A DNA stretch of 64,000 nucleotides from Cutibacterium avidum ATCC 25577 (GTDB lineage Bacteria > Actinomycetota > Actinomycetes > Propionibacteriales > Propionibacteriaceae). The stretch lies in assembly GCF_000227295.1 (NCBI RefSeq), contig NZ_JH165054.1:860948-924947 (forward strand), written 5' to 3'. Positions 39,959-55,334 of the stretch are shown piece after piece (positions within the stretch are counted from its first letter, which is position 1; every line of letters starts with the position of its first letter). A program made the position numbers and the translations under genes. The notes under the pieces are model-generated. The model made no database searches. It worked only from the letters and a program-made list of their open reading frames with translations, and was not told the origin of the DNA.

Positions 39959-42781
39959 ATGCCAACACCAAACGCGAGGAAGCGACAATGCTCAACACGT
40001 GGTCTTCCCCCAGCACGGTCCTGCTGGGGGAAGACGAACGAGGAAGCCGACTGGCTCCCCGTCGTCCAACATCTGGAGGACGCCGCCGGCGTCATGCCCG
40101 AGGTGTGGAGACTCCAACCGAGATCCATCAGATCACTGCTGTCGGACAGTCTTGGCGGCGCGGAAGCCGCCCAGGCGTTCGAATGCTTCCTGGCGGGCGT
40201 ACACGACGTCGGCAAGATCAGCGCCGACTTCGCACACATGGCACGATTTCCCCGCCGCAACGGGACGTCGACGAGCTACCTGTGCGACCGGATGGAACAT
40301 CAGGGATTCGTCATACCGACGCCCGAGCGCCCGATTCCTCACGGCACGGTGGGCCAGATCCACATCGAGTCCTGGTTGCTCGACCGCTACCGCCACCAGT
40401 CACCACGGGCACGTCGGTGCGCCCGCAACATTGCATCCATCATCGGGGGCCATCACGGGACGAACCCGACGGAGGGCGACATCGAGGAGTTGAGAAGTGG
40501 ATTGGCCAGGGAGGACGACCTCTGGAGGACCACCCGCGACGAGGTCATCGACACCATGGCCGCACACACGGGAGCCGATCAGTTTCTTGGCGACTGGATG
40601 AGCTCTCCCATCCCGATCGAGGTGCAGGTTCTCTCCGAGGGCCTCGTCATCATGGCCGACTGGATCGCCAGCTCGGAATCCCTCTTCCCCTACGACCTCA
40701 CCGATCCGACGCCGGACCGCGTCCGCAGAGCCATCGCTCGACTCCGTCTGCCTCGGCCCTGGCGGCCAGATACCGGCCCGGACACTGCCGACGACCTCTT
40801 CGCGAGGAGCTTTCCCGCACTGGCCCATGGCTCCCCCAATGCCATGCAGCGCGCGGCCGTGGAGGCAGCGGCGAGCATGACCAGCCCCGGGTTGCTCGTC
40901 ATCGAGGCCCCCATGGGTCAGGGCAAGACCGAGGCCGCGCTCATGTGCGCCCAGGTGCTGGCCCGCAGGTTCGGGCAGGGCGGCATCTTCTTCGGACTAC
41001 CCACGATGGCGACGTCCAACCCCATGTTCGGACGCGTGCGCGAGTGGCTCGACGCCGTCCCGGCCACCAACCCATCGAGCATCACACTGGCCCACTCGAA
41101 GGCCGGGCTCAACGAGGACTACCAGCAGCTCATGCCCTGGAATGCGTCGATGGCTGTCTATGACGAGGGCACCTCACAGCGCGAAGCCTCGGCGATCGTC
41201 CACGAGTGGTTCCTCGGCCGAAAACGCGCGATCCTGGCCGATCACGTCATCGGCACCATCGACCAGGCGTTGTTCACCGGACTCAAGGCCAAGCACGTCG
41301 TCCTGCGCCACCTCGGTCTGGCGAGCAAGGTCGTCATCATCGACGAGGTCCACGCCGCTGACGTCTACATGCGCGAGTACCTCAAAGTCGTCCTCGAGTG
41401 GCTCGGCGCCTACCGCACGCCCGTCATCCTCATGTCCGCGACCCTACCGCCCGCCCAGCGCGAGGAACTTGCTCTGGCCTACGCCAGAGGACGCCATGGA
41501 AAGCGTGCCACCATGGCGCTGCCCACCTCGGACGAGTACCCGCTCATGACCTGCGTCACCGACGACGTCATCCAACGCGGCACATCGGTCACGGCCCCGG
41601 CGCGCGGCATCACCATCGAGACGATGACCGACTCCCTTGACGATCTCGCGGCTCGGCTCAAGGAGCAGATGTCCGAGGGCGGTTGTGTCGGGGTCATCCG
41701 CGACACCGTCGCACGGGCCCAGGAGACCTTCGACGTACTCCGGCAGCGTCTCGACTGCGAGGTCGTCCTCGTCCATTCCAGGTTCGTCGCGCCACAGCGT
41801 GCCCGTCGGGAGTCCGACCTCGTCAGGCGTCTTGGACGCTCTGGCCAGGCCCGTCCTCATCGCATCGTCGTCGTCGGCACCCAGGTGCTCGAGCAGTCCC
41901 TCGACGTCGACTTCGATCTGCTCGTCAGCGACATCGCGCCCATGGACCTCCTCCTCCAGCGCATCGGCCGGTTGCATCGACACGACCGCGAGCGTCCGCC
42001 CCGACTTCGTGACGCCGTCTGTCTGGTCACCGGAGTCGACAGCTGGGACGACGACGGTCCGAGGTTCGGCCGTGGAATCGACCTTGTCTACGAACCGGAC
42101 GCCCTCATGCGCACCGCGGCCATCCTCGAGGATCTGCCGTCCGGTGAGATCTCGATCCCGCGGGACATCCCTCGACTCGTCCGACAGGCCTATCAGGAGC
42201 CCTTCCCCTGGCCCCACACCTGGACGGACAGGGGAGAAAAAGCCGCACTCGGTGCCAGGTCGAATCGTCAGTTGGCAGCGACTCGCGCCATGGCCTTCCG
42301 TCTGACCGATCCATTCGGCGCATCGAGCCTCATGAAAGGGCTCACCGACATGGCTTCCTCCGATCCCGAGAACACCCGCGGCCACGCGTCGGTGCGCGAC
42401 TCCGAGGATTCCATCGAGGTCATTGTCGTCCAACAATCCGACTCCGGACATCGGCTGCTCGACGACATCGGGGAATACTCCGGAACAGAGCTGCCGCTGT
42501 TCGGTGCCCCTGACGGCGATCTGGCCCGGGCCGTCGCATCGTGCACCGTCACCCTTCCCCGATCGCTGTCGAACCCTTGGGACATCGACAGGACCATCGC
42601 CGAGCTGGAGGCCGCGCCGATCGACCTCAGCTCATGGCAGACATCCCCGTGGCTTCGGGGACAACTCGTCCTCGTCCTCGATGCCCATGGCAATTCCACA
42701 TTGTTGGGACATCCACTCCACTACGATCACGATCAGGGGCTCATCGTCGAGCCCCTTCCCCAGAACGGAGCACCGGTATGA
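39959..42781 (+). CDS. cas3: CRISPR-associated helicase/nuclease Cas3 (type I-E), frameshifted near the start
   Basis: The body is complete: HD nuclease (AGVHDVGKISADF, IIGGHHGTNP), Walker A EAPMGQGKTEAAL, DEVH box IIDEVHAADVY, MSATLP and motif VI QRIGRLHRHDR. About 940 codons, usual for Cas3. The start is the problem. The RBS-backed ATG at 39988 gives MLNTWSSPSTVLLGEDERGS, while the expected LWGKTNEEADWLPVVQHL lies one frame over. Removing one base near 40024 (CTGCTGGGG to CTGTGGGG) would restore MLNTWSSPSTVLWGKTN. The ATG at 39959 that opens the long frame has no RBS and sits at or before the predicted transcription start. Either cas3 is inactive or there is a sequencing error. Confidence 0.85.
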   Translation: MPTPNARKRQCSTRGLPPARSCWGKTNEEADWLPVVQHLEDAAGVMPEVWRLQPRSIRSLLSDSLGGAEAAQAFECFLAGVHDVGKISADFAHMARFPRRNGTSTSYLCDRMEHQGFVIPTPERPIPHGTVGQIHIESWLLDRYRHQSPRARRCARNIASIIGGHHGTNPTEGDIEELRSGLAREDDLWRTTRDEVIDTMAAHTGADQFLGDWMSSPIPIEVQVLSEGLVIMADWIASSESLFPYDLTDPTPDRVRRAIARLRLPRPWRPDTGPDTADDLFARSFPALAHGSPNAMQRAAVEAAASMTSPGLLVIEAPMGQGKTEAALMCAQVLARRFGQGGIFFGLPTMATSNPMFGRVREWLDAVPATNPSSITLAHSKAGLNEDYQQLMPWNASMAVYDEGTSQREASAIVHEWFLGRKRAILADHVIGTIDQALFTGLKAKHVVLRHLGLASKVVIIDEVHAADVYMREYLKVVLEWLGAYRTPVILMSATLPPAQREELALAYARGRHGKRATMALPTSDEYPLMTCVTDDVIQRGTSVTAPARGITIETMTDSLDDLAARLKEQMSEGGCVGVIRDTVARAQETFDVLRQRLDCEVVLVHSRFVAPQRARRESDLVRRLGRSGQARPHRIVVVGTQVLEQSLDVDFDLLVSDIAPMDLLLQRIGRLHRHDRERPPRLRDAVCLVTGVDSWDDDGPRFGRGIDLVYEPDALMRTAAILEDLPSGEISIPRDIPRLVRQAYQEPFPWPHTWTDRGEKAALGARSNRQLAATRAMAFRLTDPFGASSLMKGLTDMASSDPENTRGHASVRDSEDSIEVIVVQQSDSGHRLLDDIGEYSGTELPLFGAPDGDLARAVASCTVTLPRSLSNPWDIDRTIAELEAAPIDLSSWQTSPWLRGQLVLVLDAHGNSTLLGHPLHYDHDQGLIVEPLPQNGAPV

Positions 42782-44436
42782 CGAGCGCCTTCAACCTCAT
42801 CGACGAGCCATGGATCGCGGTGCGACGTCCGGACAACGTCGTCATCGAGGTGTCGATCCACGACGCCTTCCATCAAGCGAGCAGTCTTCGCGGCTTGGCC
42901 GGGGAAATCCCCACCCAGGAGGCCGCCGTCCTGCGCCTCCTCCTCGCCATCGCCATCCGGGCCACCGCCGAGTACCGCAGTGACGACGAAAAGGTGGACG
43001 ACTGGGCGCAGTGGTGGGAGTCCGGACTACCGCTGCAGCAGATTGACGACTACCTGGGCCGCTGTCACGATCGATTCAACCTCTTTGACGACAAAGCTCC
43101 GTTCATGCAAGTCGCCGGTCTGCACACCAGCAAAGGAGGGTATTCAGGCCTGATCAAGATCATCAGCGAAGTCCCCCCGAACGACAAGTTCTTCACGACA
43201 AGGGACGGGCCTGGTATTGCGTCATTGAGTTACGCGGAGGCCGCCCGGTGGCTCGTCCACGCCCAGGCCTTCGACATCTCGGGCATCAAATCCGGGGCCG
43301 TCGGCGATCCGCGTGTCAACGGTGGCAAGGGGTACCCCATCGGGACGGGCATCAGTGGTCCCATGGGTATCGTCGTCATCGAAGGCACCAGTCTGGCCGA
43401 GACGATCCTGCTCAATCTCTTCCTCGAGGACGATCCGCAGACCGATGTCCCGGTCTGGGAGCGTCCACCGCAGACGGCAGCCCCCGACGCCGAGCACCCG
43501 GTGCCCACCGGCTGCGCCGATCTCTTCACCTGGCAGAGCCGCCGGGTGCGTCTCATCGCCGAGGCGGACCACGTCGTCGACGTCCTGCTGTGCAACGGCG
43601 ACAAGGTCGAATGGAAGTACTTGCTGCACAAGGACCCGTCGACCGCGTGGCGCTTCAGCGCACCCCAGACGAAGGCGGCCGGGGAGATCGTCTACATGCC
43701 CCGCAGCCACGACTCCTCCAGGGCCATGTGGCGAGGACTGGAGCCTTTACTGGCCCGCGAACCATCACCCGAAGACAGGCGCAGGAAGAAGGCCGGAGAG
43801 CCCGACAGGGCGTGGCTACGGCCAGAGATTCTCGAGCAACTCGCAATCCTCACCAGCGATGGCGCCCTGCCTGACGATCATCTCATTCGCATGCGGACCA
43901 TCGGCATGGAATATGGATCGCAAAGCGCAGTGGTGTCGACGACGATCGACGACTCCCTGCCGACGTCCTTGGCAGTCATCGCCAACGAGCAACTGGGACG
44001 GCTCGCCGTCGATTGCGCGCACACCGCCGAGTCCCTGGTGTTCGCCTTGCAGAACCTCGCTTCCGATCTGGCTGCCGCGACCGGCGATGAGTCGGAGGGG
44101 GTCCGCCCCCGAGCCGCCGAAGCCGGTTTCTCCGCCCTCGATCCCGCCTACCGAGAGTGGTTCAGTCGCCTCACGAGTACCACCGACGTCGATGCCGCAA
44201 CTCTGGCATGGCGCCGCACGGCTCGGCGGATCATGTGCGAGGTCGGCCTCCAGCTCTGCCGCGACGCCGGGTCGGCAGCCCTCACCGGACGCATGGTCCC
44301 GGTGCCCAACACCGAGCGAGACGACCTCATGGACCTCGCCCGCGCCTGGCAGCGATTCCTCTCCCGGATGCGCGCCAGCGCCCCCCTACCTGACGATCCT
44401 CAACGCGACACCAAGTCATCCTCGAAGGAGCAGTGA
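42778..44436 (+). CDS. casA: Cascade large subunit Cse1 (CasA/Cas8e)
   Basis: A 552-aa Cse1: FNLIDEPWIAVRRPDNVVIE is the family opening, followed by LRGLAGEIPTQEAAVLRLLL, HDRFNLFDDKAPFMQV and the L1-type loop region around GGYSGLIKI. This subunit reads the PAM and recruits Cas3. It overlaps cas3 by 4 bases (ATGA). A C-terminal four-helix bundle (ARAWQRFLSRMRASAP end) is present. Length matches the actinobacterial form. Confidence 0.93.
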   Translation: MTSAFNLIDEPWIAVRRPDNVVIEVSIHDAFHQASSLRGLAGEIPTQEAAVLRLLLAIAIRATAEYRSDDEKVDDWAQWWESGLPLQQIDDYLGRCHDRFNLFDDKAPFMQVAGLHTSKGGYSGLIKIISEVPPNDKFFTTRDGPGIASLSYAEAARWLVHAQAFDISGIKSGAVGDPRVNGGKGYPIGTGISGPMGIVVIEGTSLAETILLNLFLEDDPQTDVPVWERPPQTAAPDAEHPVPTGCADLFTWQSRRVRLIAEADHVVDVLLCNGDKVEWKYLLHKDPSTAWRFSAPQTKAAGEIVYMPRSHDSSRAMWRGLEPLLAREPSPEDRRRKKAGEPDRAWLRPEILEQLAILTSDGALPDDHLIRMRTIGMEYGSQSAVVSTTIDDSLPTSLAVIANEQLGRLAVDCAHTAESLVFALQNLASDLAAATGDESEGVRPRAAEAGFSALDPAYREWFSRLTSTTDVDAATLAWRRTARRIMCEVGLQLCRDAGSAALTGRMVPVPNTERDDLMDLARAWQRFLSRMRASAPLPDDPQRDTKSSSKEQ

Positions 44437-45065
44437 TGCCAGAACCATGGAATGACGTCAGCGCGGCGACGCTTGGCGCCGTCAACCACCTGCAGCGGGG
44501 CTATCTCGCCACACCGCGCGATCCGTGGGCGGTACGGACTCTGGCAGCCCTGCGCCATGCCGATGCGACCCGCCCGGGAACCGACCCGAATCTCTGGGAG
44601 GTGACCCTGGGCCACCTTCCGGACGATCTGGTGGGCCACGGGGCATCGCCGGCGACGTACGCCGAACGAGCCGTCCACGCCGCCGTCGTCCTCTACGCCA
44701 TCCATCAGCAGTCCCGGCCCGGGCCGATGCACGCCACCGGCATCGGATTGGGCCAGGCGGCTCGGATGCTCTCGGCGCGACGCTCGACGAGCACCGAGTG
44801 GGACCCCGGCACGGTCTCCCGGTTCCAGCACCTGTGCCGCGCCCAGCAGTGGGCCATCCGCCTCGAAAACCTCCGAGAGCTCGTCACTCTCATGCGATCC
44901 GAGGACGTCCCGCTCGACTACGGCCGACTCGCCGCCGACCTGTGGCGATTGCAGACCTCGGCATCCGACCGCGTCCTCCTGTCCTGGGGACGCCAGCTCC
45001 ACCACCTCCCATCCGACGCCCCAACCACCACCACCGAGAGCACAGACCAAGGAGAATCCCGATGA
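44436..45065 (+). CDS. casB: Cascade small subunit Cse2 (CasB)
   Basis: A 209-aa helical protein: WAVRTLAALRHADATRPGTD, AVVLYAIHQQSRPGPMH, GLGQAARMLSARRSTS and LRELVTLMRSEDVPLDYGRL AADLW. Basic residues on its surface contact the displaced DNA strand in known Cascade structures. ATG at 44436 overlaps the casA stop (TGATG) and has GAAGGAG; a GTG one codon earlier is possible. casC overlaps by 4 bases. Confidence 0.9.
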   Translation: MPEPWNDVSAATLGAVNHLQRGYLATPRDPWAVRTLAALRHADATRPGTDPNLWEVTLGHLPDDLVGHGASPATYAERAVHAAVVLYAIHQQSRPGPMHATGIGLGQAARMLSARRSTSTEWDPGTVSRFQHLCRAQQWAIRLENLRELVTLMRSEDVPLDYGRLAADLWRLQTSASDRVLLSWGRQLHHLPSDAPTTTTESTDQGESR

Positions 45066-46186
45066 GTTCGTACTACGTCGACATCCACGTCCTTCAGAGC
45101 GTCCCGCCGTCCAACGTCAACCGCGACGACACCGGGTCGCCGAAATCAGCTCTGTACGGCGGGGTCCGTCGGGCGCGGGTCAGCTCACAGGCATGGAAGA
45201 AGGCCGTGCGAACGTCCTTCAAGGACTTCCTGCCCGCTTCCCAGACCGGCGCGCGGACACTGCGCGCCGTCGAACTGCTCATGAACCGCCTCACCGCCGA
45301 TCCCTACCGACTGGCGCAGGAGGATGCTCGACAGAAGGCCCTCGCGGTCGTCAAGGCGCTCGGTCTCAAGGCCGACAAACCTCGAGTGAAGGAAGGCTCG
45401 GGCCCCGAGGGCGTCGAGCGCACCCAGTACCTCGTCTTCTACTCCAACCAGCAGCTCGATCGCCTGGCGCAGCTCGCGGCGACCTCGGAGGGCAAGATCT
45501 CCAGTTCCGACGCCAAGAAGGCCGCCGATTCCGATCATGGGGTCGAGGTCGCGTTGTTCGGTCGCATGGTCGCCGATTCCAAGTGCCTCAACGTCGACTC
45601 GGCCGTGCAGGTCGCCCACGCGCTGAGCACCCATGCCGTCGAGATCGAGTCCGATTACTTCACCGCCGTCGACGACTACAAGCTCGATGAGGACGACGCC
45701 GGAGCCGGCATGATCGGAACCGTCGAGTTCACCTCCGAAACCCTCTACCGGTTCGCCACGGTGGCTGTTTCGACCCTCGAGGACAACCTGGGAGACGTTG
45801 ATCTCACCGCCGACGCCGCCGCCGCGTTCGTCCGTGGGTTCGTCGTGTCGATGCCCACCGGCAAGCAGAACACCTTCGCCAACAACACCCTGCCCGACGC
45901 CGTCGTCGTCCAGATCCGCAAGGGCAGGTCGGCCAGCTTCGTCGGCGCGTTCGAGGACGCCATCACCTCGACCACAGGTGGTTTCGTCGAGGCATCGTGC
46001 AAGGCGCTGGCCAGCTATGCGCACGACTGCGAGGAGGCCTTCCTCGGGGCACCAGTGGCCTCCTTCGTCACCCGGGTCGGCACGCGTACCGAGGCCGTCA
46101 GCGACATGGGCACTGCCATGCCCATCGACGAGCTCGTCTCATCGGTGCGAGACCAGGTCGCTACCGTCCTGCGAGCGCAATCGTGA
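45062..46186 (+). CDS. cas7e: Cascade backbone Cas7e (Cse4/CasC)
   Basis: A 374-aa Cas7: YYVDIHVLQSVPPSNVNRDD, YGGVRRARVSSQAWKKAVR, DSKCLNVDSAVQVAHALSTH and SMPTGKQNTFANNTLPDAVV are the conserved backbone blocks. Six copies coat the crRNA spacer, kinking every sixth base outwards, which matters for reading the mini-CRISPR match upstream. It is coupled to casB (ATGA) and cas5 (GTGA). Confidence 0.94.
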   Translation: MSSYYVDIHVLQSVPPSNVNRDDTGSPKSALYGGVRRARVSSQAWKKAVRTSFKDFLPASQTGARTLRAVELLMNRLTADPYRLAQEDARQKALAVVKALGLKADKPRVKEGSGPEGVERTQYLVFYSNQQLDRLAQLAATSEGKISSSDAKKAADSDHGVEVALFGRMVADSKCLNVDSAVQVAHALSTHAVEIESDYFTAVDDYKLDEDDAGAGMIGTVEFTSETLYRFATVAVSTLEDNLGDVDLTADAAAAFVRGFVVSMPTGKQNTFANNTLPDAVVVQIRKGRSASFVGAFEDAITSTTGGFVEASCKALASYAHDCEEAFLGAPVASFVTRVGTRTEAVSDMGTAMPIDELVSSVRDQVATVLRAQS

Positions 46187-46890
46187 CCGTCCTGCTGTTG
46201 CGGCTCGCCGGGCCCTTGCAGTCCTGGGGAGACTCGAGCCGATTCACGACTCGTGCGACGCGCCGCGAACCGACGAAATCCGGTGTCATCGGGCTGCTGG
46301 CGGCGGCGCAGGGGCGACGTCGTACCGATAGCATCGAGGACCTTCTCACGCTTCGGTTCGGCGTACGCACCGACCAGTCCGGCTCGGTCGTCCGTGACTT
46401 CCAGACGGCCATGGACTGGGCGCACCCCAAGAAGGACGGCAGCATCCACGCGATGCCTCTGTCGAACCGCTACTACCTGGCCGACGCCGTCTTCGTCGCC
46501 GCAGTCGAAGGAGATCGGTCGTTGCTCGAGGCACTCGACGAGGCCATTGGAGAACCGGCGTTCCCCCTGTACCTAGGCCGCCGCGCATGTCCCACGGAGG
46601 GACAGGTGTCCTTGGGCATCCATGACGACGAGATGCTGGCTGCCTTGGAGACCGAACCGTGGCATGCCAAGCCCTGGCATCGACGTCGCCTGGGCCGCTC
46701 GGTGTACCTGCCCATCACCTACGACGCCGCCCCCGGCCAGCTCGGCGACACCGTCCGAGACCTTCCGCTGAGCTTCAACCCGGAGCGGCGCGAGTACGGG
46801 TGGCGCGACGTCGCCTCGACGGCTGTTGTCGTCGACAACCCCGACGGCAACGACGAGCCCGACTGGTTCGCGGGCCTGGAAGGAGCGTGA
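46183..46890 (+). CDS. cas5e: Cas5e (CasD)
   Basis: A GTG-started 235-aa RAMP protein: VLLLRLAGPLQSWGDSSRFT TRATRREPTKSGVIGLLAAA is a classic Cas5e opening, followed by YLADAVFVAAVEG and FPLYLGRRACPTEGQV. It binds the 8-nt 5' handle of the crRNA; the handle encoded here is GTGAGCC plus the following base. Start overlaps the cas7 stop (GTGA); the stop overlaps cas6e (TGATG). Confidence 0.93.
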   Translation: MTVLLLRLAGPLQSWGDSSRFTTRATRREPTKSGVIGLLAAAQGRRRTDSIEDLLTLRFGVRTDQSGSVVRDFQTAMDWAHPKKDGSIHAMPLSNRYYLADAVFVAAVEGDRSLLEALDEAIGEPAFPLYLGRRACPTEGQVSLGIHDDEMLAALETEPWHAKPWHRRRLGRSVYLPITYDAAPGQLGDTVRDLPLSFNPERREYGWRDVASTAVVVDNPDGNDEPDWFAGLEGA

Positions 46891-47555
46891 TGTTTCTCAC
46901 CCAGTTCGACGTCAACGTCGCCCGCCGCGACGCCGTGCGTCTGTTGGCATCTCCGGAGCGACTCCACGCCGCGGTGCTGAGCTCGTTTCCCCCTGGTCAG
47001 TCCGCTTCCGATGACGGCCGAACCCTGTGGCGACTGGATCGCGGGCCGACTCCCCATGAGGCGAAACTCATGATCGTCAGCCCGCTGAGACCTGACCTCA
47101 CCGTGCTCAACGAGCAGGCTGGATGGTCGACGGGGGTCTCGGGTCGGTCGGCTGACTACGACCCCTTCCTGCAGGGCCTCCGATCCGGCTCAACCTGGCG
47201 ATTCAGGTGCGCTGTCAACCCGACGACCGCAGTGCGCAGGACGGCCGGGTCACGCGGCCAGCGAGTTGCAGAGGTGACGGCCGAGCAGCAACTGGCCTGG
47301 TTCCTCGGCCGTGCCGAAGGCCACGGACTGTCCGTGCCCGTCACACCCGACGGGACGCCGTCCGCGCGCGTGACCCGTCGGGAGGTCCTGAGATTCCGTC
47401 GTCGGGGGTCCATGGTGACACTGGCGGTGACACAGGTGGACGGCGTCATCCATGTGGCTGACGCCGATGCCGCCCGTGTGGCACTGACCTGCGGGATTGG
47501 TCCGGCCAAGGGATACGGCTGTGGCCTCATGACTCTGGCACCGGTCGTGAGTTGA
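46890..47555 (+). CDS. cas6e: Cas6e crRNA endoribonuclease (CasE)
   Basis: A 221-aa Cas6e with two ferredoxin-like RAMP folds. FLTQFDVNVARRDAVRLLAS precedes His26, the position of the catalytic His in characterised Cas6e. The glycine-rich loop GIGPAKGYGCGLMTLAPV is at the C-terminus. It cuts at the base of the CCCCGC/GCGGGG stem in each repeat; the psi-repeats near 39.8 kb keep this stem. It overlaps cas5 by one base. Confidence 0.93.
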   Translation: MFLTQFDVNVARRDAVRLLASPERLHAAVLSSFPPGQSASDDGRTLWRLDRGPTPHEAKLMIVSPLRPDLTVLNEQAGWSTGVSGRSADYDPFLQGLRSGSTWRFRCAVNPTTAVRRTAGSRGQRVAEVTAEQQLAWFLGRAEGHGLSVPVTPDGTPSARVTRREVLRFRRRGSMVTLAVTQVDGVIHVADADAARVALTCGIGPAKGYGCGLMTLAPVVS

Positions 47556-47558
47556 GCG

Positions 47559-48497
47559 ATGGGCAAATCGATCCCGGGCGCGAGACCTGCCGAGGTCCAG
47601 GAGTTGGCGCGCGCCCAGGATCGGCTCAGCTTCATCTACATGGAGCATTGCATCGTCAACCGCGACTCGAATGCCATCACGGCGTCGAATCAGCAGGGCA
47701 CCGTGCATGTTCCGGCGTCCATGATCGGAGCGCTGTTGTTGGGCCCGGGAACGAACGTCACCCACCAGGCGATGGTGCTGCTGGCCGAGTCCGGCGCGAC
47801 GACGCTATGGGTGGGCGAACACGGTGTGCGGTATTACGCCCATGGCCGACCACTGGCCCGGACGACCCGACTGCTCGACCTGCAGGCCGAAGCCGTCACC
47901 GACCACACGAAGCGGCTGGCGGTCGCTCGGCGCATGTACGAGATGCGGTTTCCCGACGACGTCGCGACGGGCCTGACCCTGCAACAACTGCGCGGACATG
48001 AAGGGGCCCGAGTTCGGCAGGCGTATCGGGACACGGCCGTCAGGTTCGGCGTCGCCTGGGACAAGCGCAGCTACAAAGTCGAGGACTTCGAGTCGTCCGA
48101 CCCGACGAACCAGGCGCTCACTGCCGCGACGACCTGCCTCTACGGAGTCGTGCACTCCGTCATCGCGGCACTCGGACTGTCGGCCGGATTGGGATTCGTG
48201 CACACGGGCAAGGACCGATCCTTCGTCTACGACGTCGCAGATCTGTACAAGACGTCGCTGGCGGTACCAGTCGCGTTCGAATGTGCAGCGAACGGGGACG
48301 TTGACGACATCCCTGGCGCGACACGACGAGCCATGCGCGACGCCATTCATGAGTCGACATTGCTGAGCACGTGTGTGAAGGACATCCACACACTTCTCGA
48401 CGCCCCCGGAGATCCCGATGACGGATACGGGTGGGATGTTGTCGACCTGTGGGACGACCGCACTGGCACGGTCGCCGGCGGAAGATCGTGGGCATAG
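47559..48497 (+). CDS. cas1: Cas1e integrase
   Basis: A 312-aa Cas1: DRLSFIYMEHCIVNRDSNAI, VPASMIGALLLGPGTNVTHQ, RRMYEMRFPDD (catalytic Glu), GFVHTGKDRSFVYDVADLYK (catalytic His and Asp). These residues are all present, so spacer acquisition chemistry should be intact. It starts 3 bases after cas6e and is followed at once by cas2, as in all type I-E loci. Confidence 0.95.
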   Translation: MGKSIPGARPAEVQELARAQDRLSFIYMEHCIVNRDSNAITASNQQGTVHVPASMIGALLLGPGTNVTHQAMVLLAESGATTLWVGEHGVRYYAHGRPLARTTRLLDLQAEAVTDHTKRLAVARRMYEMRFPDDVATGLTLQQLRGHEGARVRQAYRDTAVRFGVAWDKRSYKVEDFESSDPTNQALTAATTCLYGVVHSVIAALGLSAGLGFVHTGKDRSFVYDVADLYKTSLAVPVAFECAANGDVDDIPGATRRAMRDAIHESTLLSTCVKDIHTLLDAPGDPDDGYGWDVVDLWDDRTGTVAGGRSWA

Positions 48498-48499
48498 CC

Positions 48500-48844
48500 A
48501 TGGTCGTGCTCGTCCTCACCGCCTGTCCCGCGGGACTGCGTGGCCACCTCACGAGGTGGTTGCTCGAGATCAGCCCTGGGGTGTTCGTCGGGCATCTGCC
48601 TGCACGGATCAGGGATGCCCTGTGGAGCCGAGTCGTTGAAATGTGCCACGACGGGCGGGCGATCCTCGTGTACTCGATGCGCGGCGAGCAGCATTTCGAG
48701 TTCCGCGTGCATCGACATGACTGGGACGTCGTCGACTTCGACGGGCTGAAACTCATGCAGAGGCCAAACAATAGGGCACACAACTCGACACTGCGGCCGG
48801 GATGGAGCTCGGCTGCGCGGCGACGTAGGACGGCCAAGCGCTAG
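48500..48844 (+). CDS. cas2: Cas2e adaptation protein
   Basis: A 114-aa Cas2e: MVVLVLTACPAGLRGHLTRW LLEISPGVFVGHL, ALWSRVVEMCHDGRAILVYS and FRVHRHDWDVVDFDGLKLM. It is the structural partner of Cas1 in the integrase complex. Its C-terminal tail is basic (SAARRRRTAKR). Its start is 2 bases after the cas1 stop, and the array leader begins directly after its own stop. Confidence 0.94.
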   Translation: MVVLVLTACPAGLRGHLTRWLLEISPGVFVGHLPARIRDALWSRVVEMCHDGRAILVYSMRGEQHFEFRVHRHDWDVVDFDGLKLMQRPNNRAHNSTLRPGWSSAARRRRTAKR

Positions 48845-48898: not shown

Positions 48899-50513
48899 GT
48901 CTTCCCCGCCTACGCGGGGGTGAGCCGACTCTCCATTCCCTCGTCACGTTGCTGAGCCAGTCTTCCCCGCCTACGCGGGGGTGAGCCTTGATGATAGTGC
49001 CAGCAACAGTTCTGATTCGTGTCTTCCCCGCCTACGCGGGGGTGAGCCGGTTGCATTCCTTAAGCCGCCAATAAGTGAAATGTCTTCCCCGCCTACGCGG
49101 GGGTGAGCCGACATGAAAAAGGGCCACTTGACTAGGCATAACGTCTTCCCCGCCTACGCGGGGGTGAGCCGACATGAAAAAGGGCCACTTGACTAGGCAT
49201 AACGTCTTCCCCGCCTACGCGGGGGTGAGCCTGTTCGGCGCAGTCCTCGAGTCCCGACGACTCGGTCTTCCCCGCCTACGCGGGGGTGAGCCGTCCGAGC
49301 CGCACTCAACCACGGCGCAAACCCGGTCTTCCCCGCCTACGCGGGGGTGAGCCGGCGCTCTCCTGTTCACCATCCTCGCCGGATTCGTCTTCCCCGCCTA
49401 CGCGGGGGTGAGCCTTCACGCCGCGATCCCCGAGGCCCTGGTCGAGTGTCTTCCCCGCCTACGCGGGGGTGAGCCGAACGCCGAGGTCATTGGCCCGGTC
49501 GACTCCCTGTCTTCCCCGCCTACGCGGGGGTGAGCCGCTGAATGGAGAGCGAGCATGAGCACCACCCCTGTCTTCCCCGCCTACGCGGGGGTGAGCCGGT
49601 CGCGGCCTTCCTTGAACAGGGAGGTGTGCGGTCTTCCCCGCCTACGCGGGGGTGAGCCTTCGAGCGTGACCTCATCGCTGAACGAACCCGTGTCTTCCCC
49701 GCCTACGCGGGGGTGAGCCTCGCCCCGACCATGCGGGCGTGAGCAGCAGAGGGTCTTCCCCGCCTACGCGGGGGTGAGCCTCCTCCCCGGTGGGTGTCTG
49801 CCCAGATGCGGGAGTCTTCCCCGCCTACGCGGGGGTGAGCCGGGCGCTATCCGGTATATGCCTGATGAGGAGATGTCTTCCCCGCCTACGCGGGGGTGAG
49901 CCCCGACTAGAGGGCGCATGGGGTATGACGATCCACGTCTTCCCCGCCTACGCGGGGGTGAGCCTCAAACCCTTGTTGATCGGGATGTCGATAACCCGTC
50001 TTCCCCGCCTACGCGGGGGTGAGCCTTGCCCATCGTGAGCCACTGCTTTGTCCCCAATGTCTTCCCCGCCTACGCGGGGGTGAGCCGGTGATATCTGGGT
50101 ATGTGCCGCTGGCTAGGACGTCTTCCCCGCCTACGCGGGGGTGAGCCGGCCACCGCCGCCCGCGTCATCGACACCGTCGGGTCTTCCCCGCCTACGCGGG
50201 GGTGAGCCGCGGGGCCAACCTGCGCTGGGCCAGGCTGGGCTGTCTTCCCCGCCTACGCGGGGGTGAGCCGGACTGATGACATGGCATCCCCAACAATTCA
50301 CGGTCTTCCCCGCCTACGCGGGGGTGAGCCGCTGAACCACACACCTCCCTATTCAAGGAAGGCGTCTTCCCCGCCTACGCGGGGGTGAGCCGGCCGCCAT
50401 ACCAGCACCAGCAAGCCCACCAACGTCTTCCCCGCCTACGCGGGGGTGAGCCTACCCGTGAAAAGGCTGCGGTAATGCTGGGTCAGTCTTCCCCGCCTAC
50501 GCGGGGGTGAGCC
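48899..50513 (+). CRISPR. type I-E CRISPR array, 27 repeats and 26 spacers
   Basis: The 28-bp repeat begins GTCTTCCCCGCC, has loop CTAC, and ends GCGGGGGTGAGCC. By comparison with E. coli the functional repeat is 29 nt and takes the first base of each spacer. All 27 copies appear identical. Spacers are 33 nt (period 61) except one of 34 nt at 49903-49936. Spacers 4 and 5 (49110-49142, 49171-49203) are identical. The base after the repeat is G in 16, T in 9 and C in 1 of 26 cases, never A, suggesting a PAM-derived position. Two further repeats lie beyond foreign inserts at 50807 and 51654. Confidence 0.97.
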
Positions 50514-50523
50514 GGAGGTCAGC

Positions 50524-50667
50524 ATGGCTGACCTTGTTATCCAGGCGTTGCAGTTGGCGACAGCGGTCGTCAACCTCGCAGCCGCCGTGATTGCGGTGCG
50601 CAAGCTCCGCAAAGAAAGCCGCCCCCGAGGTGCAACTCGGAGGCGGCGAGGTGGCAAACGCCGGTAA
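50524..50667 (+). CDS. 47-aa hydrophobic/arginine-rich small protein inside the CRISPR array
   Basis: An ORF with a perfect RBS (GGAGG, starting directly after a CRISPR repeat) and ATG at 50524. MADLVIQALQLATAVVNLAA AVIAV forms one hydrophobic helix, and the tail (RKLRKESRPRGATRRRRGGK RR) is strongly basic. This is the build of a small membrane peptide such as a type I toxin or phage lysis helper, but I recognise no family. It would be translated from the array transcript after Cas6e cuts the preceding repeat. A strong terminator follows at once. Origin: probably phage or plasmid DNA trapped in the array. Confidence 0.55.
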   Translation: MADLVIQALQLATAVVNLAAAVIAVRKLRKESRPRGATRRRRGGKRR

Positions 50668-50672
50668 ACAAC

Positions 50673-50704
50673 GGGGACCCGGTTCCACAGAGGGGCCGGG
50701 TCCC
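50673..50704 (+). terminator. strong intrinsic terminator inside the array insert
   Basis: Arms GGGGACCCGG and CCGGGTCCCC with a 12-base loop, followed by TCCTT. It lies 5 bp after the 47-aa ORF and should stop pre-crRNA transcription before the last two repeats. Confidence 0.85.
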
Positions 50705-50806
50705 CTCCTTCCACGAAGTATACCTGTCTGCGCGGGCCAGGAGAAGGGGTCGCCGGTACGCCGATGAAGCGCTTAGGTCTCACCACAAGGGCCGTTGATT
50801 GAGGTC

Positions 50807-50834
50807 GTCTTCCCCGCCTACGCGGGGGTGAGCC
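50807..50834 (+). CRISPR. displaced CRISPR repeat 28
   Basis: An exact copy of the array repeat, but 293 bp instead of 33 bp after repeat 27, and 819 bp before repeat 29. With the terminator upstream it is unlikely to yield crRNA from the main leader. Confidence 0.9.
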
Positions 50835-51142
50835 GGCATCACCGCCTCACAGACCCCCAGCGCGGCCGATGGACCGCAGCCGGAAGCGTCATCATCGACT
50901 GGCAAAACCGATCACTGGTCCCCATCGACGGAAACCTTGATGCCGTCATCGACCACTGGGCATGGACTCACGACCCCCAAGCCCACACATCCACCATGAT
51001 CGACCTTGGCACCGGAACCACCACCACCAGCCCCGTCACCGCAACCCCGGCACGCCCCCTCGGCCTCGCCCAAAACCACCTGATCGTCATCAGCGACGAC
51101 GACCAAGGGCACCTGAACCTCTACGGGCTCAAATCTGCATAA
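50835..51142 (+). pseudogene. 5'-truncated gene fragment abutting a CRISPR repeat
   Basis: An open frame runs out of the repeat and reads HHRLTDPQRGRWTAAGSVII DWQNRSLVPIDGNLDAVIDH W, ending NLYGLKSA. It has good composition but no start of its own, since the repeat replaces its 5' end. No family recognised; the acidic, WxxI-rich pattern resembles a phage or secreted-protein fragment. A hairpin terminator follows its stop, suggesting the natural 3' end of a gene. Inference: foreign DNA joined to the array by recombination. Confidence 0.5.
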
Positions 51143-51147
51143 GCACT

Positions 51148-51175
51148 GCGGCGGCGCGCTAACAAAGCCCGCCGC
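51148..51175. terminator. hairpin between convergent genes in the array insert
   Basis: Arms GCGGCGG and CCGCCGC with a 14-base loop, located between the plus-strand fragment and the minus-strand membrane-protein gene. It can serve both directions. Confidence 0.65.
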
Positions 51176-51184
51176 CACAGCACT

Positions 51185-51580
51185 TCACAGATCATCTCTG
51201 AGCATGACTTCTTTCAGCTTGCGCGCTTGCCTCTCCAAAGCCTCTTCTTCGGCCCGGTTCTCCAGCTCACCGTCAATACCAGCTGCAATGAACCACAGCA
51301 GCAAGCCACCGCCGACCAGCACACCGGCCAAGACCCACTCTCGTGTAGCAATCTCGGACAGGTGCGCGTGACGGCCAATCACCCAGACCCCATAGCCGAT
51401 GCAGACCAACCCCCCGTAGCGGCAGAACCACATTCCCAGGTGCATCGCCCCCTCACGCGGCGACACGACCAAGAGGAAGAGGGCATGGAAGAACCCAGCG
51501 ATAAAGTTCCATACCTGCTGTAGAACAAAGCCAATAAAGTTGAAAAGAGTGAGTAAAAGAGTGAGTATTAGCGCCGACAT
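51185..51580 (-). CDS. small membrane protein of unknown function, between CRISPR repeats
   Basis: A 131-aa protein with an N-terminal hydrophobic hairpin (LILTLLLTLFNFIGFVLQQV; FIAGFFHALFLLVVS), two central membrane segments (GGLVCIGYGVWVIG; VLAGVLVGGGLLLWFIAAG) and a charged coiled C-terminus (ELENRAEEEALERQARKLKE). ATG 51580 has AAGG 9 bases upstream, better than the ATG two codons earlier. Opposite strand to the array. A holin, immunity or defence effector role is conceivable, but nothing is recognised. Confidence 0.6.
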   Translation of the reverse strand: MSALILTLLLTLFNFIGFVLQQVWNFIAGFFHALFLLVVSPREGAMHLGMWFCRYGGLVCIGYGVWVIGRHAHLSEIATREWVLAGVLVGGGLLLWFIAAGIDGELENRAEEEALERQARKLKEVMLRDDL

Positions 51581-51653
51581 CGCCATCCCCTTCCGATCCT
51601 ACCAGCCAGGATAATCAACCTGACACATTCTGTGGAGGCAACCCCGCCAGCCG

Positions 51654-51681
51654 GTCTTCCCCGCCTACGCGGGGGTAAGCC
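51654..51681 (+). CRISPR. terminal CRISPR repeat 29 with one substitution
   Basis: Matches the array repeat except GTAAGCC for GTGAGCC in the handle. A mutated last repeat is the normal mark of the leader-distal end, so this was once the true end of the array. That implies the two inserts arrived inside an existing array. Confidence 0.9.
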
Positions 51682-51711
51682 GGGGTTTCTCACTCAGATG
51701 AGGAGGGCGAG

Positions 51712-52001
51712 ATGAGTGAGTTTGTTGCCGACAATGGTGTCCGAGTGACCGACGAGATGGTTCGCCAGTGGGCGAGTGAGGCTGAGTCGGGTTTTGAGGG
51801 GTTGCAGGTCGAGCCGTTCGAGGGTCGAGCTTGGGAGGAAGCGGAGACTGAGCCCCTGGAGCCTCGCACGATCCGGGTGAGTGCCAGCCCAGCGTGTGGA
51901 GGCCGATCGAACGAGACGCGGCCCGGCAAGGCATGACCGTATCCGCGTGGACCCGTCAAGCGCTCACCCGCGAGGTCGCCCAGACCCTCAAAGCCAGCTA
52001 A
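51712..52001 (+). pseudogene. ribbon-helix-helix antitoxin-like gene, frameshifted
   Basis: It starts MSEFVADNGVRVTDEMVRQW with RBS GAGGAGG-type 6 bases upstream, continues WASEAESGFEGLQVEPFEGR and EPRTIRVSASPA, then shifts frame near 51895. In the next frame it resumes WRPIERDAARQGMTVSAWTR QALTREV to a stop at 51999-52001. The VTDEMxxxWAxxAExG start and the MTVSxWxRxALxRE end are the layout of CopG/RHH antitoxins common in actinobacteria. One missing or extra base breaks it. No toxin gene is recognisable beside it. Confidence 0.6.
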
Positions 52002-52116
52002 GGATTCACGAGGCGGGACCAGGGGGCGAGGAAGTCGCTCACGCTGGGCCACTCGACGGGCGGCTCTCAGCCGTATCTGTTCGTCTCTTCAACGTAAAGC
52101 CGGGGGACTTTTCGGG

Positions 52117-52764
52117 CTAGATATTGCGGTGGGCCTTGGTTGCTTCCGGCTTGGGCTCGACAAGTTCGACCTTGAGCGGACGACCAGCCGGGTTGATGAT
52201 CTGCCGCCTGGTGCCACCAGACGGCTCACCGGTGAGCCATTCTACGACCTCAAGCGGACTGTAGAACAGCGTCACAAAAAGAGTCCCCCAGAGCCGCCAC
52301 AGAGCCTCCCCCAAGGCCTCCCTGATCAAGGAATCCCCGAAGGAGAACTCCTCCTTCCAGGAGGCCGTAATCAAGTCCGTCATAGAGACGACGAATCCGA
52401 CAGCGAGGAGCAAGATCAGCCACAACCAGCTCATACCAGCCGTAACCATGAGACCCGCACCACACCAAAAGGTCGGCCCGGAACGACCCCGACACACATC
52501 ATGAGTCGCCACGCCCAACACACCAACGACCGCGACGACAACACCAACCCGACCCCACGGAGTACCGCCAGCAAGAACAGCATCCACCCGACCCAACCAA
52601 CCAACAGGGACCACGAGAGCCCCCAACCAACCCCGCAGAATGTCAAGTGGCCGAACGTGGTCGACGATGGCGAACACAGAGAGCACCCCGACGAAAGAGC
52701 CCAAAAGCGAGTAGAGACGATCAAAGACTCCGTCACGAAGCCAAGGAAGAACTTTGTCCAGCAT
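52117..52764 (-). CDS. membrane protein of unknown function
   Basis: A 215-aa protein with about five membrane segments (LYSLLGSFVGVLSVFAIVDH; GWLGALVVPVGWLG; VGVVVAVVGVLGVATHDV; LMVTAGMSWLWLILLLAVGF; ALWRLWGTLFVTLFYSPLEV). The cytoplasmic tail is polar (GRPLKVELVEPKPEATKAHR). Start 52764 has AGGAGACC 8 bases upstream; a start at 52791 overlaps the upstream gene and was rejected. It begins 11 bases after the degenerate L,D-transpeptidase gene and probably shared its operon. Family unknown. Confidence 0.6.
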   Translation of the reverse strand: MLDKVLPWLRDGVFDRLYSLLGSFVGVLSVFAIVDHVRPLDILRGWLGALVVPVGWLGRVDAVLAGGTPWGRVGVVVAVVGVLGVATHDVCRGRSGPTFWCGAGLMVTAGMSWLWLILLLAVGFVVSMTDLITASWKEEFSFGDSLIREALGEALWRLWGTLFVTLFYSPLEVVEWLTGEPSGGTRRQIINPAGRPLKVELVEPKPEATKAHRNI

Positions 52765-52775
52765 GAGATGGTCTC

Positions 52776-53392
52776 CTAATGACGCTCGCACGGGGGCAGA
52801 TAAGCTGCGAGAATGGGCGCGGCCGCGTCATGGTAGTCGGCGTTGATGTCGATGCCCAGATATGGGAATTGACCGCCACACAACCACCGGTGTAACGAGT
52901 CGCGTAATGCATGAAGATACCCGCACCCGAACCCGCGCCATGACGAGTCGGAGAAGCATAGTTGTACGACAGCACCGCAGCCTGTCGATACAACGAACCA
53001 GCATAATCAGCCAGACGCTCATTGTCAGACGTCGACAAGTGCGAACAATCCTCACGCCACCGGTTGTAATCACGCTGGCTAGGATCCTCAATCCACCACG
53101 AACACGAGCCAATCGTGCGGTAGCTCAACTTGGTACCCGGATTACCCACACCAAAAGCCGAAACCACCCCGAAAGTACCGGCCGGGGTGGTTCGAGTACC
53201 CTGCCGACGCCGCGCCGCCCCCGATGCCACCGGACAACGCAGGGAAGGAAGGCGGTGGTTATGCCTGGTTCCATTGATGGTTCGTCCTTCCACTCGAGCA
53301 TGACCGACGTGAGGAACTGCTTCGAGGGCCACGATCGGCGGTCCACAGGCTCGCGCTGCGTCAACGACCAGATGATCCCCGTAATACCGCAA
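52776..53392 (-). pseudogene. L,D-transpeptidase (YkuD-like) gene, frameshifted
   Basis: The middle reads RRRQGTRTTPAGTFGVVSAF, SWWIEDPSQRDYNRW, AAVLSYNYASPTRHGAGSGA and GIFMHYATRYTGGCVAVNS, the YkuD catalytic H-x-x-x-G-C layout. After VNS the long frame turns to nonsense (HIWASTSTPTTMTRPR). One frame over, the sequence reads PYLGIDINADYHDAAAPILA and stops at 52776, just before the next gene's start, so a one-base loss is likely. The N-terminal 60 residues are atypical and no signal peptide is visible, so the 5' end is probably damaged too. Confidence 0.6.
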
Positions 53393-53436
53393 GGAGGCTC
53401 ATCAGGTTCAAGCCTCATCGTGGCGTGACACAAATC

Positions 53437-53487
53437 GGGGGGCTTTCCATGAGGATCGACACAAAATCTCCCTCATGGAAAGACCCC
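53437..53487. terminator. hairpin terminator after the Tat-exported protein gene
   Basis: Arms GGGGCTTTCCATGAGG (53439-53454) and CCTCATGGAAAGACCCC (53471-53487) pair with one bulge. Placed 84 bp after the stop of the minus-strand gene at 53571. Confidence 0.65.
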
Positions 53488-53570
53488 GACAACTTGATCG
53501 TCCCATCAATCACCTATGCCTTGACACGTCACATGAAGCCGACTCGAGTGGCCTACATGGAATTCCAGGC

Positions 53571-54359
53571 TCACTGAGGACAGGTGCTCCAACGCATGGG
53601 GCTGATCGAGACGTACTGTCTACCCATGCCATGTTTGGATGCGTTGCCACCCGGTTGGGTATCCCCGTAGAAGACGGTGATCTGCGTCACCGCTTCAGTT
53701 GCGGACGTCTCGAACCGTATCGTTCCACGGTGGTTGCCTCCATTATCCGTAAACTGTGCGACGCGGCTATCTGACACCGCTGTCACCCTGTTGGTTCCCT
53801 CACCATCAACCTGCAGAGAATTCTTGAGTGCTCCGTACTTGTAGTCATGACGGGTCTTGAACACAGGATGCGACGTTCCGTCGCCAGTGGCCGTCACGGT
53901 CACCTTATCGATATACCATGCAGGAGCATCATGAGATGAATCTATCTGACCGATGTAAAAGGCAAGCCCGTACACCGGTCTTGAAAAAGTAATGGTCAGA
54001 GTTTGCCCCAAGCCATCCTTGTCATCGGCCCTGACCGCCTGAGCAAGGTTGAGCCATGTGGACTTGAGCGTATCCTTATCGGTTGGGGTGAGGTCATAGT
54101 CGTCCGGCATCTTGTGCCAGTAATCCGCTATGACGTTGTTATCCTTCCAGGTGTCAACATCTCGAGTCTTCTCGAGGTTGTAGGTAGCGCCTTCCGAGAG
54201 CGCCGAGGACGGCCTCCAGACGCCGACAGTGGTTACACACTCACTGGTCGCATACGCTGATAGCGCGCTGCTCGCCACGATCGCCGGCACAGACCAAGCC
54301 GATGCTGCGACAACAGAGCGCCGAGAGGGCTGCCCCCGCTGGAAGAGGTCACCATTCAT
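53571..54359 (-). CDS. Tat-exported surface protein of unknown function
   Basis: A 262-aa protein with a twin-arginine-like signal: RGQPSRRSVVAASAWSVPAI VASSALSAYATS, cleavage near AYA. The mature part is a beta-rich domain (QTLTITFSRPVYGLAFYIGQ, WYIDKVTVTATGDG, RGTIRFETSATEAVTQITVF) like adhesin or carbohydrate-binding domains in other Cutibacterium surface proteins. No cell-wall sorting signal is seen at the C-terminus (RWSTCPQ). ATG at 54359 follows AAAGGG by 8 bases; a longer TTG start was rejected. It is divergent from the lipoprotein gene at 54592. Confidence 0.65.
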   Translation of the reverse strand: MNGDLFQRGQPSRRSVVAASAWSVPAIVASSALSAYATSECVTTVGVWRPSSALSEGATYNLEKTRDVDTWKDNNVIADYWHKMPDDYDLTPTDKDTLKSTWLNLAQAVRADDKDGLGQTLTITFSRPVYGLAFYIGQIDSSHDAPAWYIDKVTVTATGDGTSHPVFKTRHDYKYGALKNSLQVDGEGTNRVTAVSDSRVAQFTDNGGNHRGTIRFETSATEAVTQITVFYGDTQPGGNASKHGMGRQYVSISPMRWSTCPQ

Positions 54360-54591
54360 CTCCGTGTGCCCTTTCAGGTTCAACTACATATGCCCGAAAT
54401 AGTTCTACTCGGCCACTCCTATATACCATTCGATTGTCATGTTTACAAACTGTCGATCACCTGTCGACTACCGCGCGACGGCTGGGCGTCGACCTCAACG
54501 AGGACACCACCCGGATCATCGATACGGTCACCCATACAGGCAGGAGAGCGTCATGATCTCTTCTGCACTCATCTCTGTCAGGAAGGTTCCT

Positions 54592-55200
54592 ATGCACCAT
54601 CGTGGTATCGCTGCCCTCACCGCCGTAGCAGCCCTCACCGGCTGCCACTCAGCAGGATCAACGTCGGCACCCACGCCGACACCGAGTACCCCCACCACAA
54701 CATCGGCATCATCGGTAAGCGCCTCCTCCTCGTCAACACCCTCAGCAACCCCAACGCCATCGGCGGGGGCCGTCAGTGCCGCCGAAGCCGAAAAGGTCTA
54801 CCGCACCATCCACAGAAATAACTTCGAGTTGGAGAAGATGGGAGGTTTGGCCCCTGGCGAACCGGCCCCGCTCATGCTCACCAACTACGCCAGCGGGTCA
54901 GCCCTCAAGGACTACATGACCTTCAACCACAAGATCTCAGGGCTGGGCATCAAGATCACATCAGGGAACTCCTCCGTTACCGCGGTGCGGGAGAAGAAGG
55001 GTGACACCACCCATCCTGAGGCTGCCATCGCCCTGGAATCGTGCGAAGACTACAGCTCCATCCGGACTGTGGACCGCCACGGAAAGACTGACCATGGACA
55101 CATCATCCATGTCGATAGCTGGTATACCCGCGACAAGGCAGGCACCGTCAAAATGATCGCATTCAACTCAGTAAAGGTTCCCTCATGCGACGTCAAGTAA
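54592..55200 (+). CDS. lipoprotein of unknown function
   Basis: A 202-aa lipoprotein: MHHRGIAALTAVAALTGCHS has a clean lipobox (LTGC). A long Ser/Thr/Pro linker (about residues 20-65) leads to a domain of about 130 aa (AEKVYRTIHRNNFELEKMGG, LTNYASGSALKDYMTFNHKI, IALESCEDYSSIRTV). ATG at 54592 has AGGAAGG 5 bases upstream and gives a short proper signal; an ATG at 54553 also has an RBS but adds an unneeded 13 residues. The domain resembles secreted Cutibacterium/Propionibacterium proteins of unknown role. Overlaps a short secreted ORF at its end. Confidence 0.65.
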   Translation: MHHRGIAALTAVAALTGCHSAGSTSAPTPTPSTPTTTSASSVSASSSSTPSATPTPSAGAVSAAEAEKVYRTIHRNNFELEKMGGLAPGEPAPLMLTNYASGSALKDYMTFNHKISGLGIKITSGNSSVTAVREKKGDTTHPEAAIALESCEDYSSIRTVDRHGKTDHGHIIHVDSWYTRDKAGTVKMIAFNSVKVPSCDVK

Positions 55201-55334
55201 TCACCACGACCCTCCTGGGCCTGACGCTGGAAACCACTGCGCTCCCCGCTCTTGCCGAGAGTAACAGCGTTGATGGGAGCGTGAACACGGATATGCGTGG
55301 GCTCATCGTAACACACGTATACACTGTGACCTGA
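55185..55334 (+). CDS. short secreted peptide or truncated exported protein (49 aa)
   Basis: An ATG at 55185, inside the end of the lipoprotein gene, has AAAGG 7 bases upstream. The product MRRQVITTTLLGLTLETTAL PALAES is a good Sec signal peptide ending at ALA, followed by only about 23 residues (NSVDGSVNTDMRGLIVTHVY) before a stop. Such a short mature part suggests the start of a longer gene cut off by rearrangement, but a genuine secreted peptide is possible. Translationally coupled to the lipoprotein. Confidence 0.45.
   Translation: MRRQVITTTLLGLTLETTALPALAESNSVDGSVNTDMRGLIVTHVYTVT

What the first reader, a model, noticed from the sequence alone, without database searches (positions are those of the whole stretch)
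50514..50704. A 47-aa toxin-like ORF wired into the pre-crRNA
RBS GGAGG starts at the base after a repeat, the ORF has a hydrophobic helix plus Arg-rich tail, and a strong terminator follows. Its mRNA would be the tail of the array transcript, freed by Cas6e cleavage. This could make the peptide report on array transcription or Cas6e activity, for example as a guard that punishes loss of processing, or simply be phage debris.
Basis: inference. Interest (0 to 1): 0.65.

Follow-up and report, generated by a model that had tools for sequence, protein, structure and literature searches.

The report
Oversized CRISPR spacer carrying small gene
The small "toxin-like" gene is most likely a passenger on a roughly 300-base piece of foreign DNA sitting between two CRISPR repeats of a skin bacterium (Cutibacterium), where a normal immune memory is 33 bases; related species hold plasmid pieces of up to about 1,600 bases in the same way, which suggests that the memory-writing machinery sometimes records whole genes.

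Summary
The ORF, its Shine-Dalgarno and the hairpins exist, but the array does not end at repeat 27. A perfect repeat follows at 50807 and a one-mismatch repeat at 51654, so the 47-aa ORF lies inside a repeat-bounded 293-bp unit; an 819-bp unit follows. The genome is Cutibacterium avidum-like with a complete type I-E system. Relatives hold repeat-bounded units of about 0.46-1.6 kb, all in the trailer part of their arrays. Donors, where found, are Cutibacterium linear plasmids: one 1053-bp unit equals a continuous plasmid segment from repeat to repeat (97.9%). The three left edges mapped to close plasmids follow 5'-AA, the PAM of ordinary spacers (chance about 5e-5); right edges are not PAM-defined. 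I conclude that the unit is an oversized, PAM-anchored spacer and the ORF a captured passenger. "GGAGG directly after the repeat" then fits PAM AA plus GGAGG, AAGGAGG in the donor. A dedicated guard toxin is not supported: no homologue, no self-targeting spacer, no antitoxin or promoter candidate, a start hairpin hiding SD and AUG, and ORF statistics near chance. The donor of this particular unit was not found, so its capture is inferred from its siblings.

The parts
39959..48841 (+). Type I-E cas genes: cas3, cse1, cse2, cas7, cas5e, cas6e, cas1e, cas2e
   Evidence: NCBIfam and Pfam matches
48899..50513 (+). Regular part of the array: 27 identical 28-nt repeats, 26 spacers of normal length
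49537..49570 (+). Ordinary spacer identical to Cutibacterium linear-plasmid DNA, preceded there by AA (PAM)
   Evidence: same spacer quoted in PMC3316620
50486..50513 (+). Repeat 27 (perfect), left border of unit W1
50514..50806 (+). W1: 293-bp oversized spacer-like unit
   Evidence: repeat-bounded on both sides; donor not found
50514..50535 (+). Shine-Dalgarno GGAGG (50514-50518) and start hairpin with AUG in a 3-nt loop
50524..50667 (+). 47-aa ORF, hydrophobic helix plus Arg-rich tail
   Evidence: no Pfam match, weak PHROG match E 0.048
50618..50647 (-). Terminator-like hairpin on the minus strand, inside the ORF
   Evidence: folding
50673..50705 (+). Strong hairpin after the ORF, terminator-like but with a poor T tract
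   Evidence: not called by the scan
50807..50834 (+). Repeat 28 (perfect), right border of W1
50835..51653 (.). W2: 819-bp oversized unit; begins inside a truncated ORF (+) and holds a 133-aa membrane-protein-like ORF (51185-51586, minus)
   Evidence: no homologue found
51654..51681 (+). Repeat 29 (one mismatch)
51682..52012 (+). Plasmid-derived DNA starting at the end of repeat 29 (ribbon-helix-helix gene, disrupted here, open in G002)
   Evidence: 87% to AP024748.1, plasmid reads GACGAA upstream of the edge

Best explanation
The 293-bp stretch is an oversized spacer: foreign (plasmid- or phage-type) DNA placed between two intact repeats, most likely by the system's own Cas1e-Cas2e with a normal PAM-defined left end and a failed length cut at the other end. 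The 47-aa ORF is a captured passenger gene (or chance ORF) with its SD and hairpins, not a part evolved for the CRISPR system. Its SD lies at the first base of the unit because PAM AA plus GGAGG is the SD AAGGAGG of the donor. The unit survives at the trailer end because its terminator-like hairpins do little harm there. Shown: repeat borders, length, recurrence in the genus, plasmid donors and AA-preceded left edges of sibling units. Inferred: the same origin for this unit, Cas1-Cas2 as agent, passenger status. If pre-crRNA is read into the unit, Cas6e would cut in repeat 27 and leave a short 5' leader whose handle Cascade normally holds and whose SD is paired, so I expect little or no translation.
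For: W1 is bounded by two perfect repeats and W2 by a perfect and a one-mismatch repeat. Sibling units in G002, G004 and C. porci occupy the same trailer position. The 1053-bp unit of G004 equals pTP-CU411 1576-2628 over its whole length, 97.9%, and the plasmid reads GCGAA directly before it. The 1577-bp unit is plasmid DNA at both borders and follows GGGGGAA; the window/G002 trailer piece follows GACGAA. Ordinary spacers with close plasmid matches are preceded by AA. AA is 3.6% of plasmid dinucleotides: three of three about 5e-5, at least three of five about 4e-4. Right edges are not 33 nt from a PAM. Plasmids read carry no repeats. GGAGG with ATG behind it is preceded by AA in 18 of 124 plasmid cases against 3.6% of GGAGG sites overall. 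Type I-F spacers of wrong length mostly keep the PAM end and err at the distal cut (PMC5059440). The window also contains intact cas1e and cas2e.
Against: No donor was found for W1 or W2, so their left-edge PAM is untested. The cleanest two-edged cases come from a metagenome-assembled genome (G004) with an N gap elsewhere in the same array. Two lower-identity edges read AG and GA, not AA. The GGAGG excess at spacer starts is weak (5 against a mean of 1.6). No kb-scale acquisition by a CRISPR Cas1-Cas2 was found in the papers searched.
Confidence: 0.68

Rival explanations
1. Spacer-primed recombination: an ordinary plasmid-matching spacer recombined with, or was copied from, the incoming plasmid, so that plasmid DNA beyond the protospacer was pulled into the array and joined to the next repeat. 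The ORF is again a passenger.
For: It also gives a PAM-adjacent left edge and an arbitrary right edge; one or two bases of shared sequence exist at two right edges (G, GT). The arrays do hold spacers against the same plasmids.
Against: It does not explain complete repeats on both sides of every unit; a 33-bp homology is short for recombination; the two-spacer version is excluded by the right edges.
Confidence: 0.17
2. A dedicated CRISPR-linked guard: the 47-aa peptide is a toxin whose expression is controlled by array transcription, Cas6e processing or Cascade, as the first reader proposed (CreTA-like in logic).
For: Hydrophobic helix plus basic tail, SD at the repeat border, hairpins.
Against: No homologue anywhere and no conservation beside other Cutibacterium arrays; no promoter match, no self-targeting or partially matching spacer above shuffles; start site in a stable hairpin; ORF plus SD in 5% of shuffles.
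Confidence: 0.05
3. A mobile element or insertion sequence landed in a spacer near the end of the array.
For: Insertion sequences do enter arrays: a 1142-bp insert in Oerskovia flava carries a transposase-like ORF and matching ends.
Against: W1 and W2 hold no transposase, no matching ends and no split spacer; both borders are whole repeats.
Confidence: 0.04
4. Decay of an integrated plasmid next to the array, with single repeats copied into it by recombination between repeats.
For: The DNA right of the array to about 55261 is patchily plasmid-like.
Against: Units come from separate plasmid loci, are divided by single intact repeats and, in G004, by ordinary spacers; the plasmid sequences read hold no repeats.
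Confidence: 0.06

Closest known systems
Type I-E spacer acquisition by Cas1e-Cas2e
   Same: Position between intact repeats, leader-trailer layout, left edge next to the AA PAM (in sibling units), plasmid donors
   Different: Units are 0.3-1.6 kb instead of 33 bp; right end not measured; units carry whole genes
Variant-length (aberrant) spacers, e.g. type I-F in Pectobacterium (PMC5059440)
   Same: PAM end correct, PAM-distal cut inaccurate
   Different: There the reported errors are treated as small shifts around the 32-nt length; here hundreds of bases to over a kilobase
Casposase integration (PMC6977970)
   Same: Cas1-family integration of long DNA with duplication of a repeat-like target site
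   Different: Casposases act on their own element ends; here a CRISPR Cas1-Cas2 would act on plasmid DNA with one PAM-defined end (inferred)
CreTA / CRISPR-guarding toxin-antitoxin RNA (from general knowledge)
   Same: Tiny ORF-like element associated with a type I CRISPR locus
   Different: No antitoxin crRNA-like element with degenerate repeat, no Cascade-controlled promoter, no conservation
Type I toxins and small phage membrane peptides (from general knowledge)
   Same: Short peptide, one hydrophobic helix, basic tail
   Different: No antisense antitoxin seen, no homologue; resemblance is by composition only

Membership tests
CRISPR spacer (type I-E), oversized | lies between two repeats of an array next to type I-E cas genes | tested here: met
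CRISPR spacer (type I-E), oversized | derived from foreign mobile DNA | tested here: inconclusive
   no donor for W1; siblings and trailer piece are plasmid DNA
CRISPR spacer (type I-E), oversized | donor carries the PAM (AA) directly before the unit | tested here: inconclusive
   not testable for W1; met for three sibling edges, one mismatch in two low-identity edges
CRISPR spacer (type I-E), oversized | length of about 33 nt | tested here: not met
   293 bp; hence 'oversized', not an ordinary spacer
CreTA-like CRISPR guard | antitoxin crRNA-like element (degenerate repeat plus spacer) next to the toxin | tested here: not met
   flanking repeats are perfect and no degenerate repeat-spacer element adjoins the ORF
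CreTA-like CRISPR guard | spacer partly matching the toxin promoter so that Cascade represses it | tested here: not met
   no AA-PAM seed match of array spacers in W1/W2, best matches at shuffle level, no promoter match
CreTA-like CRISPR guard | toxicity when Cascade is lost | not testable with these tools
   needs an experiment
Type I toxin | small hydrophobic peptide | tested here: met
   47 aa, best 19-residue hydropathy 1.94
Type I toxin | antisense RNA antitoxin on the other strand | tested here: inconclusive
   no sigma-70-type promoter match and no Rfam family; consensus scans cannot exclude one
Insertion sequence | transposase and matching ends | tested here: not met

The most novel reading that the evidence does not exclude
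Cutibacterium Cas1-Cas2 can integrate PAM-ended DNA of 0.3-1.6 kb as full-site insertions, a casposase-like activity, so that type I-E arrays act as gene-capture sites; some captured units carry plasmid addiction modules (a ParE-type toxin with a DUF6290 partner and a HicA-like gene in one relative) that could by themselves stabilise the array.
Probability: 0.3. Interest if true: 0.82.

Novelty: new variant of a known kind. Interest (0 to 1): 0.5.

Why it matters
Spacer length is thought to be fixed by the Cas1-Cas2 ruler plus trimming. Natural kb-scale units with correct PAM ends would show that the PAM end and the length end are controlled separately, that the full-site reaction tolerates long DNA (the overlap of casposase and CRISPR integration pathways is left open in PMC6977970), and that arrays can hold whole genes, toxin-antitoxin modules included. 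It also warns that an RBS touching a CRISPR repeat can be explained by overlap of the AA(G) PAM with the Shine-Dalgarno sequence.

Tried and rejected
Peptide search in the own genome, 96 relatives, phages, plasmids and viral contigs: nothing; the many matches are all E 0.05 or worse, i.e. noise. Exact DNA patterns of W1 in viral contigs: none. W2 proteins: none. Guard/CreTA reading: no self-targeting spacer, no promoter match. Two-spacer recombination model: right edges not 33 nt from AA. Plasmid-borne repeats as source of the borders: none in the plasmid sequences read. tblastx between inserts and plasmids was dominated by composition noise and not used. Enrichment of SD at spacer starts: weak only. 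The 324-bp unit in G040: no donor. The 1014-bp unit of G002: no plasmid match. Literature searches for long or oversized spacers gave no report of the phenomenon in the open-access library; subscription papers were not searchable.

Full report
1. What is there. The window holds a complete type I-E operon (cas3 to cas2e) followed by an array of 27 identical 28-nt repeats (48899-50513). But the array goes on: a perfect repeat lies at 50807-50834 and a one-mismatch repeat at 51654-51681. The ORF therefore sits in a 293-bp stretch (W1) framed by two perfect repeats, and an 819-bp stretch (W2) follows. The terminator-like hairpin after the ORF is very stable but has a poor T tract. A second hairpin, inside the ORF, reads as a terminator on the minus strand, and a third encloses SD and AUG. 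As an ORF it is only marginally special: 5% of shuffles give an SD-preceded ORF of at least that length.

2. Where it is. Relatives found through Cas1 include Cutibacterium species. The repeat and one spacer (GCTGAATGGAGAGCGAGCATGAGCACCACCCCT) are exactly those reported for Propionibacterium (now Cutibacterium) avidum ATCC 25577 (PMC3316620). That paper counted 28 repeats and 26 spacers; the section read does not mention the large units.

3. Not alone. In G002 the array ends with a 1014-bp unit and a 757-bp unit, the latter ending at a truncated repeat (19 nt intact). G004 (Cutibacterium sp. S24M_St_45, a metagenome-assembled genome) has units of 1577, 879, 467, 1053 and 456 bp interspersed with normal spacers; C. 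porci (G001) has larger gaps bordered partly by degenerate repeats. All lie in the trailer part of the array. Most other arrays fetched, including Acidipropionibacterium timonense and the array of G005, have no such gaps; one in Oerskovia is an insertion sequence.

4. The donors. Cutibacterium linear plasmids match the sibling units. The 1053-bp unit of G004 equals pTP-CU411 1576-2628 from repeat to repeat at 97.9%. The 1577-bp unit is a mosaic of plasmid segments that reaches both borders; it holds a ParE-type toxin (Pfam PF05016), its DUF6290 partner, and a HicA-like gene that stays below Pfam's cut-off. In the window and in G002 the DNA right of the last full repeat is the same plasmid locus (87-88%). 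None of the plasmid sequences read has a repeat-like sequence.

5. The edges. Ordinary spacers that match these plasmids closely are preceded by AA on the plasmid, the local PAM. The left edges of the G004 1053-bp unit, the G004 1577-bp unit and the window/G002 trailer piece are also preceded by AA; two lower-identity edges (82% and 76%) read AG and GA. AA is 3.6% of dinucleotides, so three of three has a chance of about 5e-5, and at least three of five about 4e-4. In none of the units does the right end lie 33 nt behind an AA. The pattern is one correct end and one uncontrolled end, the same asymmetry as reported on a small scale for aberrant type I-F spacers (PMC5059440).

6. Why the RBS touches the repeat. 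If the unit was cut at an AA PAM, its donor read AAGGAGG, a full Shine-Dalgarno sequence. In the plasmids, GGAGG followed by ATG 4-9 nt later is preceded by AA in 18 of 124 cases, against 3.6% of GGAGG sites in general.

7. Function. I see no case for a guard: no conservation, no antitoxin element, no self-targeting spacer, a closed start site. As part of a pre-crRNA, the 5' handle left by Cas6e would normally be held by Cascade, which should further hide the SD (inference from general type I-E knowledge). The most likely role is none; the ORF is a passenger. At the trailer end its hairpins cannot silence many other spacers (inference).

8. Limits. W1 and W2 have no donor in the collections, so their capture is inferred from siblings. 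The cleanest two-edged cases are in a metagenome-assembled genome with an N gap in the same array. Cas1-Cas2 as agent and spacer-primed recombination are not fully separated; intact repeats on both sides and unmeasured right edges favour Cas1-Cas2. Absence from the literature refers to an open-access library only.

Noticed in passing
L018 6177-7753 (G004, Cutibacterium sp. S24M_St_45): A 1577-bp unit between two CRISPR repeats carries a plasmid ParE-type toxin with a DUF6290 partner and a HicA-like gene; such addiction modules inside an array could stabilise it.
   Followed up: partly
window 49598-49632 and 50331-50362: Two spacers are near reverse complements of each other (93%) and match overlapping sites of the same plasmid locus from opposite strands.
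   Followed up: partly
window 49109-49202: Two neighbouring spacers are identical (GACATGAAAAAGGGCCACTTGACTAGGCATAAC), a recent repeat-spacer duplication.
   Followed up: no
window 51682-55261: The DNA right of the array is a patchy plasmid relic: ribbon-helix-helix gene piece, an L,D-transpeptidase piece (96% to p11-79) and a pilus/lipoprotein-region piece (about 77-83%), before the ABC transporter genes.
   Followed up: partly
window 50514-50535: The start codon lies in the 3-nt loop of a 9-bp stem that takes in most of the SD; it may have been an operator in the donor.
   Followed up: partly
L024 805-5033 (Cutibacterium porci): Gaps of 1343 and 2858 bp between partly degenerate repeats; the second holds a full oxidoreductase-like gene of chromosomal appearance.
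   Followed up: no
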